DNA of 64,000 nt, from contig JASKOT010000005.1 in the NCBI GenBank assembly GCA_032158125.1, positions 802,968-866,967 on the forward strand. Reading direction: 5' to 3'. Below the pieces are notes generated by a model, which had not been told where the DNA came from, ran no database searches, and saw only the letters and a program-made list of their open reading frames with translations. The stretch is from Papiliotrema nemorosa (taxonomy: Eukaryota; Basidiomycota; Tremellomycetes; Tremellales; Rhynchogastremaceae). Of this stretch, positions 7,901-59,351 are shown piece by piece; positions within the stretch are counted from its first letter, which is position 1, and each line of letters starts with the position of its first letter. Both the position numbers and the translations under genes were made by a program.

Positions 7901-8707
7901 CAGGATGGTGGTTCACGTGAGTCATAGCGTTACCATCCGCTGATCTCAGTCTTTCCCTTTTGCGGTTTCATGATTGATACGAAGACACTTGAGCTCAGCC
8001 CCGACATACCAAGGATGATCGCAGGAGGCGGGTTCCCCCGTGAGACAAGGGTTTGAGCTCATCGTTAGATATGGGGCAATCCTTTGCGCTGAGATTCGCT
8101 CGACGTCGCGGGAAAGCGTTTGTCGGGTGGCTGAGTCGACAACTTGAGAATCGAAATCATATAGCCTATGTGCGTCAACTGCTTTTCCGGTGAGGTGGCT
8201 GATGAACAGCTGAATACCTCGCATAATACCGTAATGGTGGTTCACTTGAACGTCTTTTTGAACTTTGCCTCGACTGCAATGAAGATTCCGCACTACTTTG
8301 ACAAGGCGGAAGATATCTCGTCACATGCTGCGAGGACCATATTTGGTGAGTCGAGCTCGATGGTGCGGTTGACATGGAGAATCCATTTGCGCCTCTGTGG
8401 AATACACCTATGTTGCCGGTCGAGCTCGGGTTCGACACGCCGCAAGGAACGAGCGGGATGGCTCGCAACACTATCTAGTCCGTAAAAGCGATTTTGAATA
8501 GTCAGTTTACCGTCTCAGAGCAGATCTGACCCTAGTCTTGCGAAAAGTGCCATCATCAAGGTGCTTGTCAGGAAAGCTGGGCGGTTCAAGGATGTCTTGC
8601 ATTTGTTGAGGGGCGATCTTGACAAGAGGGCGTATCGGCATTTGCGAGATCGACATCAAGCGACGATTGACCGGGGATGGGGTCAAGTCAAGGGCGCCCA
8701 GTATTGA
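4992..8707 (+). CDS. TERT: Telomerase reverse transcriptase (catalytic subunit), 16 exons
   Basis: Sixteen exons (4992-5734, 5780-5862, 5901-6106, 6142-6274, 6321-6520, 6556-6687, 6719-6922, 6959-7062, 7096-7408, 7452-7517, 7553-7916, 7950-8039, 8069-8169, 8210-8345, 8380-8477, 8519-8707) give an uninterrupted 1053-residue frame, the usual TERT size. N-terminal (TEN) signature: STSIFTLVENNSFVQITGVP. RNA-binding domain: VVGSQHNMQTIKR, FIFWLFNDYLISLLR and T motif NTFYVTETSQTRYQTVYY. Reverse transcriptase motifs: 1/2 VRLIPKPNGFRPIVNLGKK, A FVKMDIKSAFDTI, B' REGIPQGSKISS, C LLRYIDDFLYIT, D SSGKTLTSF, E FPFCGFMIDTKTLE. The thumb (TSHNTVMVVHLNVFLNFA) and an extension ending at 8707 follow. Catalytic Asp residues (motif A; DD of motif C) are present. 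Intron 15 uses a GTCCGT donor. A possible extra 36 nt in-frame intron sits near 7681-7716. The enzyme copies telomere repeats from its RNA subunit. Confidence 0.93.
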
Positions 8708-8874
8708 TATCTTTTTTGAGCTGTATGAGTACTCCAGTTGTATGCCACGATGTATCCCTCTCAATGTATCCCAATGCCAAACCCTGATCAGGAGAGAATC
8801 ATCATCCATGCGCAACATTCGTACAAGCCCACAACGATCTCCCATCCCATGACCCGTTTCCTTCCAAGACGCAC
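8708..8874. other. Convergent intergenic spacer TERT / RPL21
   Basis: This 167 nt spacer separates the TERT stop codon (8707) from the RPL21 stop codon (8875). It must hold both 3' untranslated regions. I see no further gene in it. Confidence 0.7.
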
Positions 8875-9546
8875 TTAGATGGTGGTCTCGTCTAGACCCA
8901 TCAGCGAAAACTCTAACACCACGCGAGGCACACTCACAAGGTTGAGCGGTAAGAGTCTGAGGAGCGTTGTTCTTGATCGAGATGTGTCGAGCCTCTCGTG
9001 GTTGAGCGGGCTGTCTCTTCAAGTTGACAAACTCTCCCTTTGCCTTTGCCTCCTTCTTTGCTGCGGCGTTGCTCTTCACTCGGTCCAAGAACTCTTGTCG
9101 GCATTTAGAGTGTCGGACGTGCTCGACTCGGACGTTGACTCGCTTCTCAATGTATCGACCGTTGACCACCTTGTAGATGATGACACCGACACCTCGAGGG
9201 GAGACGTTGTAGACGATACCGGTCTTTCCGTGGTAGAATTTGTGGGGGAGACCCTTTTGCTCGGAAGCGTTGGCCTTGATGTCGACAATGTCACCGACTC
9301 GGTAGACGGTCAAGAAGGTCTTCAAGGCGGGCATTCCATGGTCTGGATAGTGCAAGCAGATTGAGCGGGGCGGGATTGAGCGGTAGGATCAGGAAGACGA
9401 GTGCGTTTATGGTATGAGGAGAAATGTCGAATCAAGGTAACACTAGGTCAGCTATTAGATCCTTCTCTCCAACATCATCTACGCACCCTTGATGTTCTTC
9501 TTAAACATGTGACGCGTTCGCGCCCTGATACCGAAAGAGTGAGGCA
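8875..9546 (-). CDS. RPL21: 60S ribosomal protein L21 (eL21)
   Basis: Three exons (9546-9487, 9342-8938, 8891-8875). The protein starts MPHSFGIRARTRHMFKKNIK and continues TFLTVYRVGDIVDIKANAS, HKFYHGKTGIVYNV, RVNVRVEHVRHSKCR and LKRQPAQPREARHI. It ends APQTLTAQP plus YETTI from a final 17 nt exon. These are hallmark eL21 sequences. The first intron is 144 nt, much longer than most here, and the last (8937-8892) is 46 nt. If the last intron is ignored the frame runs on to 8507 as an artefact antisense to the 3' end of TERT. The gene diverges from RPS9, with about 600 nt between start codons. Confidence 0.93.
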
Positions 9547-41600: not shown

Positions 41601-42960
41601 TGGATATCCGTGACCCTTCTGCCTTGACAGGTGCTGCTACCCCCTGGTGACTGTCATTGCACCTCACTCTGCCCCTGATATCATCTACGATGCAAGGCGT
41701 TGGACAATTACTCCAATGATGTGGACGATCCCGACCGTTGTGCCAGTCCGGATACGACCAATCTGTAAGGCATACGGCAGGAAAGATGTGAGCGAAACTC
41801 CATGAAGACAAGAACAATCGGTGAGCACTTGACGTCAGTTGCATGTGGGCTTTGGGTTGATTGGATCCGATTACTCCATCAACAAGTGTAGGGAAATCGA
41901 CAAAATCGAAGGACAGCTGCAGGTCATGGGTGGTTGCGGCAGGCTTCTAAAAAGATGGGGGAATAAGGATGACGGGGAAAGGAATACGCAATCGTCCGCC
42001 AGCAATACCTGCTGTTCTAGGCAGTCGGTTCCGTCATTGACATTCAACGAAGAAAGACCGATCTGAAGCAGAGTCGTCTCGAGCAGCGATCTCAAGCAGA
42101 GTTGAAGGGCCATTTTGCTATTGCTCTTCCTGACTGAGCGCTGCAGGGCTGTCACACAGGTGTAGTGACGACGAACAGTGAGATAGAGCTGTTCCCGTCC
42201 GAAAGGGGGCGCGAGTTGCTGGAATGAAGGAGAGACCTACTGCGGTGACCAGAGCAGCCGAGACCGAAAGGAGGCGAAGGGGTCATCGCGTTTTCGGACA
42301 AGTGTGAGAGTCGTCTCTTCATCTCTCATCCTACTCAATGAACCCTCTCCTCTGGATGCCCCTCTTGTTCTCGGTCTTGCCCCATTTATCCACGTGGAGA
42401 CCTTGATTGATATACTTAGGGACTAGAACTTCCAGTCAGGCGTGGCTTTACACGACTGAGTCACCGGCATCGTATTGTTTGCGCTTTACCGTAGCTGCGT
42501 TTCGACCCTTCTCGTTATGCAGCTACAGTGGTTTAATGTCGCAGCGGTCCTCTGATGTGGAAGGCCGAGAACATTGGGTACGCTCCTTGGGTGTGTTATA
42601 CACCTCCATCGGTGAATGGGGGACTCGAGGGATCTTCAGGCAGAACATTTCATCGACCTCTCTGATTCTCGATGGCGCGACCCGCTTCCCAGACCTTGCG
42701 AGGAGGAATCAATATCCCCGAGGAGACGAGACCGAACACCGTGGCACGGTACAATCTTTGAACTGTCAAGCTTTCACCTGCTGTCATTTACTTCTTCTGT
42801 CCAACCTTCCAACTGATTAATCACTCACCCCAACCGTCTTCCTTCTCTTCTAACCCAGTACCAGGTCCATCATTAGGTCACCATAGCACAGCCCAACAAA
42901 AGTTGATTATTTTACTTGACCACTGCGCTCCGTCCCACAGTATCCCGCCGCCACTGAGAT
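38700..42960. other. 4.3 kb stretch without a recognisable gene
   Basis: Both strands carry only short frames with frequent stops. One plus-strand frame at 41173-41439 (HFDGDITHLIKFGLMSNAWL) has protein-like composition but no start context, splice partners or family. No terminal inverted repeats, LTRs, reverse transcriptase or transposase motifs were seen. It may be decayed sequence of the same accessory kind as the flanking pseudogenes. Confidence 0.4.
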
Positions 42961-42986
42961 ACGCCCTGCGCATTGCCTTTGACAGT

Positions 42987-42992
42987 TATATG
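42987..42992 (+). promoter_or_regulatory. TATA box of the U6 gene
   Basis: TATATG lies about 28 nt upstream of the predicted U6 5' end (near 43015), the spacing usual for a TATA element of Pol III-transcribed U6 genes. Part of the promoter assignment is inference from distance. Confidence 0.5.
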
Positions 42993-43126
42993 AAGATGAC
43001 AAAGTGTGGGGCCCATTGCCCGGCGTAACTGCCGGGCCCATAACAAAATTGGGTAAGCCCACGCTGTCCGAGGTGTAAAGTTTGTAAACTGACCCTCTAG
43101 AACGATACAGTCAGTACAGACCGTTC

Positions 43127-43135
43127 GTTCGAACC
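43127..43135 (+). promoter_or_regulatory. Pol III B-box inside U6 intron 2
   Basis: GTTCGAACC matches the B-box consensus GWTCRANNC exactly and lies within the second predicted intron (43110-43158). In Schizosaccharomyces pombe the U6 intron likewise contains the B-box needed for transcription, which is established knowledge. Function here is inferred. Confidence 0.55.
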
Positions 43136-43255
43136 CCAGTGGCTGATGGCTCGTGTAGGAGAAGATTAGCATTGTTGGTCGAAATTTGCCACCCGTCCGC
43201 GTAATGCTAATCCTCAGGCCCCTGCATAAGGATGACAAACTTTGAACAGAGTGGA

Positions 43256-43271
43256 CGACGCTTCGGCGTCG
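43256..43271 (+). other. Perfect hairpin with C(UUCG)G tetraloop in U6 exon 4
   Basis: CGACGC-TTCG-GCGTCG forms a 6-bp stem closed by the very stable cUUCGg loop. It is followed by AAATATTTTT and so sits just before the predicted terminator. The same hairpin is conserved unchanged in the partial copy at 47.4 kb. Confidence 0.75.
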
Positions 43272-43526
43272 AAATATTTTTGCAATGTCAGAGCAGCTTT
43301 CGACGACCGCTGGGGATAGCATGGACGACTTTTGCAGTTCGTTTTGCCCCCCCCCTGCGCCACATTCACCTCCACACGCGTTGTTAAACTCGCAGGAATG
43401 TCGCCAAACATCTTTCCTTGACTCTTTCATGTGACATCGCCTACCATAAAGGGGTGCGCAAATCGACGGCTGCAGCGCGCAGCTCAGTGTCGAAAGACGC
43501 GTTCCGCGGGCCACAGCGACAGCTCC

Positions 43527-43982
43527 TTACACACTCACAGGCAATTCAACATCGGCCCATGATGTGTTGTCAGCGAGAGAGAAGCGAGCGTCAAAAGATA
43601 TGCCAAAGGATGCCTCAAAGGATGCCTCAAAGGATGCCTCAAAGGATGCGTCAAAGGATGTGTGAACGGATGTGTAAGTTGATGTGTTGGGGGATGCGTC
43701 GAGGGGCAGCGCGCGGCGCGCGCAGTATCGATCATCCTCGTCCGCCATCTTTTGCAATTGTTTCCAGCTGAGGGTCGAACCATGATACAGATACGGAGTA
43801 CAGCTAGCGAGCACACCCTTCAGCGCAACAGCCAAGGAGCCGTGTCGACCAGTCAGCCGACCTCGACCCGTGGTGAGCAGAATCTTCGCATCGTCTGCGG
43901 ATCGCTGACACTTAGAATCCCGTAGCATGAGCAGATCCACCCCGTCCGTCAAGTCCATGTCTTTTCCTCCTGCCCCAATCAT
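43527..43982 (-). CDS. Possible small protein with EASF repeats, doubtful
   Basis: An open frame of 151 residues from the ATG at 43982, reading MIGAGGKDMDLTDGVDLLML, then TGRHGSLAVALKGVLASCTP and STLSWKQLQKMADEDDRY. The C-terminal part encodes repeated EASF units from the 12-bp tandem repeat on this strand. No family is recognised and no introns are needed. It lies in a gene-poor region close to the U6 gene, so it may be a chance frame. Confidence 0.3.
   Translation of the reverse strand: MIGAGGKDMDLTDGVDLLMLRDSKCQRSADDAKILLTTGRGRLTGRHGSLAVALKGVLASCTPYLYHGSTLSWKQLQKMADEDDRYCARRALPLDASPNTSTYTSVHTSFDASFEASFEASFEASFGISFDARFSLADNTSWADVELPVSV
43602..43666 (+). repeat. 12-bp tandem repeat (AGGATGCCTCAA)
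   Basis: Four nearly perfect copies of AGGATGCCTCAA are followed by degenerate copies (AGGATGCGTCAA, AGGATGTGTGAA) and looser ATGTGT units up to about 43700. This is a short minisatellite. The unit length is a multiple of three, so frames through it stay open. Confidence 0.85.
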
Positions 43983-47429: not shown

Positions 47430-47531
47430 CTGGGCCCCTGCATAAGGTATGACAAACTTTGAACAGAGTGGACGACGCTTCGGCGTCGAAATATTTTTGC
47501 AAAGTCAGAGCAGCTTTTGACGACCGCTGGA
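47430..47531 (+). pseudogene. Partial U6 copy (3' half only)
   Basis: The segment repeats U6 exon 4 and its downstream flank from the gene at 43015: GCCCCTGCATAAGG, an inserted T, ATGACAAACTTTGAACAGAG, then the identical TTCG hairpin, ATATTTTTGCAA and GTCAGAGCAGCTTT. Only about three differences occur over roughly 100 nt. The first three exons are absent. The extra T falls in the U6 AAGGATGACA sequence, so the piece should not yield functional U6. Weaker similarity (GC.GCATTC..CC) continues downstream to about 47570. Confidence 0.8.
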
Positions 47532-56867: not shown

Positions 56868-59351
56868 TCAATGATGCACCTGACCTATCAACAACTCTTC
56901 AAACTCTCCGATCCTGGGCAGTCGACCCTTATCCTGCCACTTGCCAACCCAGGCATCAATCTTCCCTGCCATATCCTTGGGCTCAAATCCAAAGTATTCA
57001 TACAGCTGCTTCTGAGGTGCCGAGTGACCCTTCATGTCAGCCGAACGCAAAACTCCAAACTCACGAAAGTGTGCATGGACAAAGACGCGTGCGCATACTT
57101 TGACCAGCCATACGACGACCACGCCTCGATAGCAACCGTCAAGTGGTCAAAGTCGATGACGGAATGTCGATACTCTTCCGATTGCAAGTCAAAGTGGCGT
57201 TGAGAAGGCATGGAAACGACTCGAACCTTTTTCGCCTTGGACAGGAGCTTCGCCGTGGCAATAGCTCGAATGACCTCTGCGCCCGTAGCGACTAGAGTGA
57301 GGTCTGGGTCCGGGATATCCGCGCCGTGGACAATGTACGCTCCCAGAGCAACCTTGCTTCGGTCGGATCCAGGAAGAAGGGGAACAGGTTGTCGAGAAAG
57401 GGTAAAGATGCTCGGCGTGTCTTTCGATTCATCCCCCAGTGCCAGCTGCCACATGCCCATGCACTCTTCCGCATCGGCAGGTCGGATGAGATTGATGTTT
57501 GGAAGTGCTCGGTAAAAGGCAGAGAGGGCGACGGGCTGATGGGTTGGACCTAATATCAGCGTGACACAGTCATATACTCACCATCTTCCCCAATACCGAT
57601 CGAATCGTGAGTTGCGATACCGATGAAGCGAAGCTTTTGAAGCGCTGCCATCCGCGCTGCTGGTGCTGCATACAGCCAGAACATGAAGAATGTAGACATG
57701 ATTCTGTCTGTCAGAACGGCTTGCCAAACGTCACGTACGGAATAATCATGCCCTTGTGGTAGGCCGCCATTCCGTTGCCAAGGCCCACCATGGCAAACTC
57801 TCTGATACCGTATCGGACTTGTCGTCCGCTGTAATCCCCCAGACCCGAATCCGGCTATCGTCAGCGGTGTCGATGTTTCTTGGCGTACCTTTTGAAACTC
57901 TACCTGCCCATCGAAGTTGACAAAGGTCGACTCGAGCAGATCGGCTGATCCTGCCACAAAAGTCTTAAATTTTGGTGCTAGAGCCTGAACAACGATACCG
58001 CTCGACTTTCGAGTCGGCTGCTCTGCTTGAGGTAGCTTGTCCTTGGCGGGAAGCAGAGAATGCCAGTCGTCCGGGGCGAATTTCCCGGATAATCGCAGTT
58101 CCAGATCCTCGTGCAAGTCCGGGTGAGACTTTGCGTATCCCGCATACAACGCGTTCCATTCATCTTCCGCTTTTGCACCCTTTGTCTTACACTCGGCAAA
58201 GTAATCGTACACCTTGTTGTCCACGTGGAACTTTTTGGAAGGGTCAAAGCCGAGCTGCTGCTTGACATAGGCGACCTCGTCGTCGCCGAGCGCTTGGCCG
58301 TGTGCCGGACCCGTGTTGGCCTTTCGAGATGAATAACCAATGACTGTGCGGATGTTGAGCAAGGTTGGCTTTCCGGAAGATCGCTTGGCCTGGTCGAATC
58401 CTCTGAGAATAGCCGCAAGCTGATCGTTAGCATGTTTGTCATACCTGAAACTCACATCGTTCGAGCCATCGTAGACATCAATAACATGCCACCCCTGAGC
58501 CTTCAATTTGGCCGAGGTATCCTCTGTAAAGCAGTTGTCTATCGAGCCATCTACGGTGACCGAGTTGTTGTCGTACACCAATATCAGGTTGTCAAGACCA
58601 AGGTGACCAGCGAGAGACACCGCTGTGATGAGTCCCCGTCCGATGCACTCTTCCAAGCTCGACTCACATTCTTGGCCGACTCCCTCTTGCAGACATCCAT
58701 CTCCCGTAAAGCACCAGATCTTGTTGTCGACGATGGGGAAACCATCTCGGTTGTACGTGGCTGCCAGCTGCTTGGAAGCAATGGCCATTCCGACAGCGTT
58801 GGAAATACCTTGACCCAGAGGTCCGGTCGTCACCTCGATTCCTGATGATCAGCACTTGAGTGGGTGATCGCACCCACCTGGATACTCAATCTCTGGATGG
58901 CCGGCAGCCATGGAGCCAGAGGTCTCGGGAGAGTGATACTTTTTGATCTGGTCCATGGTCCAGGCCTTATAGCCGGAAAAGTGCAAGAAGAGGTACTGAA
59001 ACAGGCAAGCATGCCCGGCAGACATGATGAAGCCTGCAGATCAGCTACGACCTCGGGCGCGCTCACGATCTCGGTTGAACCACTCAGGGTTGGACGGGTT
59101 GTACCGCATCTCGTATCTCCATAGCGCGATACCAATCGCGGCTGCGCCCATGACAGTACCTGGGTGTCCTCCTTTGTATTGCTGGCACAGGTCGGCGGCT
59201 AGACATCGTATGGTGTTGAGCACAATCTGCTCCTCTTTGACCTGAAATCTCAGCAAAAGTTGAATTTACAGGAAGAACAACTTGCCGAGGTGACATTGTC
59301 GGTGGTCTTGGGTTTAACGTCAAGCTCTTTCGCAATCTCTTTGATAGACAT
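56868..59351 (-). CDS. Transketolase-family enzyme (transketolase or dihydroxyacetone-synthase-like)
   Basis: From MSIKEIAKELDVKPKTTDNV at 59351 to the stop at 56868, roughly 690 residues over about nine exons. Thiamine diphosphate site: GHPGTVMGAA, TTGPLGQGISNAVGMAIASK and FTGDGCLQEGVGQE followed by VYDNN. Pyrimidine-part sequence: YGIREFAMVGLGNGMAAY and THDSIGIGEDGPTHQPVAL, then NINLIRPADAEE. C-terminal domain: TLVATGAEVIRAIATAKLL, VVSMPSQRHFDLQ and MKGHSAPQKQLYEYFGFEPK. The enzyme moves two-carbon ketol units between sugar phosphates. Several C-terminal features recall dihydroxyacetone synthases, but no peroxisomal PTS1 ends the protein (it ends QVHH), so I leave the subtype open. Confidence 0.87.

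What the first reader, a model, noticed from the sequence alone, without database searches (positions are those of the whole stretch)
43015..43281. U6 snRNA gene apparently split by three introns within its catalytic core
Four consecutive pieces of U6 appear in order, separated by three 44-49 nt segments with GT...AG ends and branch-like CTGAC/CTGAT/CTAAT. Intron 1 precedes AACGATACA, intron 2 cuts the ACAGAGA box, and intron 3 lies between AGCAT and GCCCC; internal exons are only 9 and 15 nt. Introns in U6 are known from S. pombe and some basidiomycete yeasts and have been explained by reverse splicing into U6. Three introns within 62 nt of mature RNA would be an extreme case.
Basis: partly seen in the sequence, partly recalled or inferred. 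Interest (0 to 1): 0.88.

Follow-up and report, generated by a model that had tools for sequence, protein, structure and literature searches.

The report
U6 RNA gene carrying three introns
In a basidiomycete fungus, the only complete U6 gene found, which makes the catalytic RNA of the splicing machine, is itself cut by three introns, so the cell appears to need finished U6 in order to make more U6.

Summary
On the + strand, 43018-43281, a U6 snRNA gene is split by three GT...AG introns of 48, 49 and 44 nt. Joined in silico, its exons match human U6 at 48 of 51 core positions and S. pombe U6 at 49 of 51. Breaks fall after human nt 34, 43 and 58: before AACGATACA, inside the ACA|GAGA box, and between the AGC triad and the internal stem-loop. 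The assembly (19.2 Mb, 68 contigs) showed no uninterrupted U6 in four searches. The only relative found is an exon-4-only fragment at 47433-47530. U2, U4 and U5 each rang once, unbroken; U1 was not found. The genome's own U4 pairs well with the joined RNA. I read it as the functional U6 gene, not a pseudogene. U6 genes with one or more introns are known in fungi, so this is a strong new member of a known kind. Not shown: transcription, splicing, or any relative's sequence.

The parts
42986..42993 (+). TATA-like element (TTATATGA), 32 bases before the inferred RNA start
   Evidence: sequence; role as Pol III promoter element inferred
43018..43052 (+). Exon 1: 5' stem-loop GCCCGGC/GCCGGGC then ...AAAATTGG (start +/- a few bases, inferred)
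   Evidence: fold and alignment
43053..43100 (+). Intron 1, 48 nt, GTAAGC...CTGAC...TAG, branch A at 43092
43101..43109 (+). Exon 2, 9 nt, AACGATACA (5' part of the ACAGAGA box)
43110..43158 (+). Intron 2, 49 nt, GTCAGT...CTGAT...TAG, branch A at 43146
43127..43135 (+). B-box-like element GTTCGAACC (fits GWTCRANNC) inside intron 2
   Evidence: about 0.023 expected per 49 nt at the window's frequency
43159..43173 (+). Exon 3, 15 nt, GAGAAGATTAGCATT (GAGA and AGC triad)
43174..43217 (+). Intron 3, 44 nt, GTTGGT...CTAAT...CAG, branch A at 43210
43204..43213 (+). AATGCTAATC in intron 3, exact reverse complement of GATTAGCATT (43164-43173) in exon 3, overlapping the branch site
   Evidence: reached in 4.3% of 20,000 shuffles that keep the branch motif; predicted hairpin
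43218..43281 (+). Exon 4: internal stem-loop strand, tail, 3' hairpin, ends in TTTTT (43277-43281)
47433..47530 (+). Truncated copy of exon 4 plus 32 bases of the gene's 3' flank: one inserted T within exon 4, two substitutions in the flank; no exons 1-3 seen upstream

Best explanation
This is the fungus's working U6 snRNA gene. RNA polymerase III would start near 43018 from the TATA box, helped by a TFIIIC-binding B box lying in intron 2, and stop at TTTTT (43277-43281), giving a precursor of about 264 nt. Existing spliceosomes would then remove three ordinary U2-type introns, one at a time because 9- and 15-nt exons leave no room for neighbouring complexes, giving a mature U6 of about 123 nt that joins U4/U6 and U2/U6. 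New U6 is thus made only with the help of old U6. Shown by sequence: exons, splice signals, promoter-like and terminator motifs, pairing with the own U4, no other complete copy found in the assembly. Inferred: transcription, splicing, order of removal, use of the B box.
For: No intact copy by the exact 3'-domain pattern, by an 18-base core pattern with up to 2 mismatches, by a DNA search with the joined 122-nt RNA, or by the 3' domain with up to 3 mismatches. U2, U4 and U5 ring above Rfam threshold, one copy each, unbroken, so the assembly does hold snRNA genes. The own U4 5' end and the U6 internal stem-loop strand give -19.4 kcal/mol, reached by 2 of 2000 shuffles; the human U6 strand with this U4 gives -14.4 and the truncated copy -16.1. 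Cofolding of the joined RNA with U4 gives the two-stem U4/U6 shape. Introns fit the local type: 5' sites at the 35th, 59th and 46th percentile and branch sites at the 66th, 77th and 11th of 157 candidate window introns; those candidates were picked by GTNNG and CTRAY, mostly unverified, so this is a rank among look-alikes. No T run of four or more inside the unit before the terminator, though 59% of window stretches of 259 nt also lack one.
Against: No RNA data. No relative's U6 could be fetched, so neither intron positions nor exon conservation were tested across species. The predicted mature RNA carries U where human and S. pombe U6 have G just before junction 3; the folded internal stem-loop is weaker (-2.7 against -5.4 kcal/mol for human), a version with the consensus G cofolds better with the own U4 (-38.7 against -36.9), and stem I does not clearly compensate (-8.1 with own U6, -8.0 with consensus). 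RNA that keeps intron 3 has lower energies still, -53.8 in the cofold and -15.3 for its stem I side with the own U4, so pairing with U4 does not by itself show splicing of intron 3. Introns 2 and 3 have C and T at +3, where excess over the reversed control is small (33 against 20 and 27 against 21; G 74 against 22, A 29 against 18). U2/U6 helix II is weak evidence: 97 of 2000 shuffles reach it with the tail up to the 3' hairpin, 177 of 2000 with the full tail, 579 of 2000 with a shorter tail. No A box was found. U1 was not found, so either the searches or the assembly miss at least one snRNA gene.
Confidence: 0.92

Rival explanations
1. Pseudogene: a dead U6 locus that collected insertions, while an intact U6 lies in an assembly gap.
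For: A truncated U6 fragment exists 4.2 kb away, so U6 pieces do get copied here. U1 is not found either, so something may be missing from the search or assembly.
Against: The core is intact at 48-49 of 51 positions, all three insertions carry splice signals at exactly the breaks (about 7e-13 by chance), promoter-like and terminator motifs are in place, and the own U4 matches. A decaying locus would hardly keep these together (inference).
Confidence: 0.04
2. Same gene and same working, but intron 3 starts four bases later (GTCGAA at 43178), giving a mature RNA with AGCAUUGUUGGCCCC. A variant of the best explanation, so its odds overlap with it.
For: The internal stem-loop folds better (-5.3 against -2.7 kcal/mol), the U4/U6 cofold is slightly better (-39.3 against -36.9), and stem I with the own U4 is -9.8 against -8.1.
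Against: GTCGAA scores -1.88 as a 5' splice site against 6.12 for GTTGGT; 62% of all GT in the window score at least as well.
Confidence: 0.07
3. Working U6 gene, but the inserts are removed by an RNA endonuclease and ligase, as with tRNA introns, not by the spliceosome.
For: Pol III transcripts such as tRNAs are processed that way (recalled).
Against: All three inserts have GT...AG and CTRAY, with 7, 8 and 12 bases from branch A to the end; window candidates mostly have 6-9 (65 of 75). Introns of the window's transketolase gene look alike.
Confidence: 0.02

Closest known systems
Schizosaccharomyces pombe U6 gene with one mRNA-type intron
   Same: Pol III U6 gene, spliceosomal intron near the catalytic bases (passages read in PMC10484740 and PMC8917221); from memory also a B-box match inside the intron
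   Different: One intron there, three here; here one break lies inside the ACAGAGA box. The exact S. pombe position was not checked
U6 genes with introns in basidiomycete yeasts (Rhodosporidium dacryoidum, Rhodotorula hasegawae; Tani and Ohshima 1991, recalled, not held)
   Same: Several mRNA-type introns in one U6 gene (four in R. dacryoidum as I recall) in the conserved centre
   Different: This host is placed near Filobasidium and Cryptococcus by one protein, another class of basidiomycetes; intron positions could not be compared
Fungal U6 introns surveyed by Canzler, Stadler and Hertel 2016 (recalled; not held; seen as a reference in PMC5832005)
   Same: As recalled: canonical splice and branch motifs, many independent insertions in fungal U6
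   Different: Could not check whether their set holds this species or this arrangement
Fungal U3 snoRNA introns (PMC5832005, passages read)
   Same: Small structured RNA genes interrupted by spliceosomal introns; [quoted passage not shown]
   Different: U3 is not part of the spliceosome's catalytic centre

Membership tests
U6 spliceosomal RNA (RF00026) | ACAGAGA box, AGC triad and internal stem-loop strand | tested here: met
   48/51 with human, 49/51 with S. pombe after in-silico joining
U6 spliceosomal RNA (RF00026) | Score over the Rfam gathering threshold | tested here: not met
   Unspliced DNA only: none at gathering, 15.3 bits against 44 on exon 4. The tool takes no joined sequence, so the spliced RNA was not scored
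U6 spliceosomal RNA (RF00026) | Pairing with the species' own U4 (stems I and II) | tested here: met
   Cofold; stem II 2 of 2000 shuffles; stem I forms but is no better than with the consensus base
U6 spliceosomal RNA (RF00026) | Pairing with the own U2 (helices I and II) | tested here: inconclusive
   Helix I -4.6 kcal/mol, no shuffle control; helix II 97 of 2000 shuffles with the tail up to the 3' hairpin, 177 of 2000 with the full tail, 579 of 2000 with a shorter tail
Pol III U6 gene | TATA near -30 and T-run terminator | tested here: met
   TATA-like 42986-42993, TTTTT 43277-43281; start inferred
Pol III U6 gene | B box bound by TFIIIC | tested here: inconclusive
   Motif present in intron 2, binding not testable; A-box consensus TRGYNNARNNG and a relaxed form had no match in 42991-43260
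Intron-bearing fungal U6 gene | U2-type introns with GT...AG and CTRAY branch site | tested here: met
Intron-bearing fungal U6 gene | Spliced RNA detected in cells | not testable with these tools
   no RNA data held
Intron-bearing fungal U6 gene | No uninterrupted U6 elsewhere in the assembly (bears on function, not strictly defining) | tested here: met
   within the limits of a 68-contig assembly and of searches that score only the best candidates

The most novel reading that the evidence does not exclude
The introns are part of how the gene works. Intron 2 carries the B box and so cannot be lost without losing transcription, and intron 3 carries a 10-base exact complement of the AGC region that overlaps its own branch site. 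Unspliced U6 would thus be locked in a U4-like hairpin, kept out of spliceosomes, and released only when enough active U6 exists, giving a built-in positive feedback on the amount of U6.
Probability: 0.1. Interest if true: 0.85.

Novelty: new member of a known kind. Interest (0 to 1): 0.55.

Why it matters
If RNA data confirm it, a cell whose only U6 gene needs three splicing events per molecule makes the self-dependence of the spliceosome unusually stark and open to test: U6 supply should fall off faster than other spliced RNAs when splicing is slowed. The positions (inside ACAGAGA, next to the AGC triad) bear on the idea that introns enter U6 by reverse splicing at the active site. The break directly after the adenosine that I recall as the m6A site of human U6 (A43) would mean that this mark can be placed only after splicing.

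Tried and rejected
Rfam U6 by its standard threshold on the window and whole genome: nothing, as expected for a split gene; the 14 control genomes there also rang in none, so the blank alone proves nothing. A scan of viral contigs for a split ACA...GAGA arrangement: 0. Two 2-mismatch hits of the core pattern (L002, L003) gave no Rfam match at E 0.01. The 3'-domain pattern with up to 3 mismatches gave 12 places including the gene against 9 for its reversed control; the other 11 are near chance level and were not examined one by one; this pattern does not allow for the copy's inserted base and so missed the copy. U1: Rfam, two spaced patterns and an 11-base 5'-end search (2 hits, which look like coding sequence to my eye) found none; left open. 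Naming the host from a first ORF: 9 proteins, none with an organism name; a second one gave names. PDB sequence search with the transketolase: not informative for the host. Similarity among the three introns: none beyond shuffles. Homology of the copy's upstream DNA to exons 2-3 and intron 3: weak, 18 of 300 shuffles reach it; not claimed. Co-change of U4 stem I with the altered base: looked good by eye, but the energies do not support it. Absence of T runs as evidence: 59% of stretches also lack them. PMC9789556 (passages and one section): two U6 genes on one contig of Rhodosporidium kratochvilovae; that section says nothing of introns.

Full report
WHAT IS THERE. The window lies at the end of contig C5 of a 19.19 Mb assembly of 68 contigs. 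A transketolase-like gene in the window has its best named matches in Filobasidium floriforme (65%) and Cryptococcus bacillisporus (66%), with Kwoniella and Naganishia further down the list, so the host looks like a fungus of the class Tremellomycetes (class name recalled). This rests on one protein. At 43018-43281 (+) the U6 pieces occur in order, with breaks of 48, 49 and 44 nt. The words of exons 2, 3 and 4 occur once each on the + strand of the window.

IS IT MORE THAN CHANCE. Yes. Each break has GT at one end and AG at the other, and the only other placement that gives the same product is not GT...AG. Of 191,859 segments of these lengths on the + strand of the window, 17, the U6 introns included, have the 5' site, branch and AG pattern. 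The window's own introns are of this type: in the transketolase gene, four gaps and two breaks of the alignment to the Filobasidium protein mark introns of 32-45 nt, and five of these six coincide with a GT...CTRAY...AG segment; the sixth, 45 nt, was not matched by my pattern (coordinates compared by hand). Two further likely introns there shift the frame and were not counted. Of 75 de novo candidates of 28-60 nt outside this gene, 33 are 31-36 nt and 23 are 43-49 nt; most are unverified. The U6 introns belong to the longer group. In C. neoformans, introns of 40-60 nt are reported to be spliced best and those under 40 nt poorly (PMC11913375, passages read).

IS IT THE ONLY U6. The exact 3'-domain pattern hits once. 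The uninterrupted core with up to 2 mismatches hits twice elsewhere, in places with no Rfam match. The joined 122-nt RNA finds its own exons 1, 3 and 4 (exon 3 only at E 2), and one other place, 98% alike over exon 4. That place, 47433-47530, holds exon 4 and 32 bases of 3' flank, with one inserted T in the stem-loop strand and two substitutions in the flank, and no earlier exons by my reading of the DNA before it. It is a truncated copy. U2, U4 and U5 were each found once, over threshold, from first to last model position. U1 was not found, so absence from such searches is not proof.

HOW IT WORKS. Before the gene is a TATA-like element 32 bases from the inferred start; at its end is TTTTT. 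Intron 2 contains GTTCGAACC, which fits the B-box consensus GWTCRANNC, the only such match from 42901 to 43600 on this strand; 0.023 are expected per 49 nt and 0.13 per 265 nt. From memory, S. pombe U6 also has a B-box match in its intron; a search for this gave a listing of six papers that I did not open. No A box was found. In the joined RNA, U6 GCAUAAGGAU pairs with the 5' end of the own U4 (-19.4 kcal/mol, 2 of 2000 shuffles; the human U6 strand gives -14.4). Stem I forms with exon 3, but the departure from consensus at the last base of exon 3 gains nothing there and costs a little in the whole cofold (-36.9 against -38.7). RNA that keeps intron 3 also pairs with U4, at lower energy. U2/U6 helix II is possible but weak (97 of 2000 shuffles with the tail up to the 3' hairpin and 177 of 2000 with the full tail; 579 of 2000 with a shorter tail). 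In the precursor, exon 3 GATTAGCATT is an exact complement of AATGCTAATC over the branch site of intron 3, and a hairpin of -18.5 kcal/mol is predicted for 43159-43221. Since the branch motif itself resembles the complement of the AGC region, the extension to 10 bases comes up in 4.3% of 20,000 shuffles, so this is a lead only.

WHAT IT IS LIKE. U6 introns are known: S. pombe has one, thought to arise by reverse splicing (PMC10484740, passages; its intron also in PMC8917221, passages). A 2017 paper states that U3 and U6 are so far the only small structured RNAs known to be often interrupted by an intron (PMC5832005, passages). Tani and Ohshima 1991 and Canzler et al. 2016 are not held; I recall four introns in Rhodosporidium dacryoidum U6 and many independent insertions across fungi. 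On that basis three introns are not a record. Ten literature searches in an open-licence library listed no title on this gene; that library lacks the key papers and I opened passages of five papers only (PMC5832005, PMC9789556, PMC10484740, PMC8917221, PMC11913375), so I make no claim of first report.

VERDICT. It is a new member of a known kind, of good interest because the gene appears to be the sole U6 source, has two very short internal exons, and keeps a promoter-like element in an intron.

Noticed in passing
47433-47530: Truncated copy of U6 exon 4 and its 3' flank, 4.2 kb from the gene, with one inserted T
   Followed up: yes
43588-43683: Short tandem array of 12-base units (such as AAGGATGCCTCA), downstream of the U6 gene
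   Followed up: no
43164-43173 and 43204-43213: Exact 10-base inverted repeat between U6 exon 3 and the branch region of intron 3
   Followed up: partly
whole genome G000: U1 snRNA not found by Rfam, two spaced patterns or an 11-base 5'-end search; it may be divergent, split by an intron, or missing from the assembly
   Followed up: partly
56871-59238: Transketolase / dihydroxyacetone synthase-like gene on the - strand with several introns of only 32-45 nt; very short introns seem usual in this window
   Followed up: partly
8507-9355: ORF on the - strand with a ribosomal protein L21e domain
   Followed up: no
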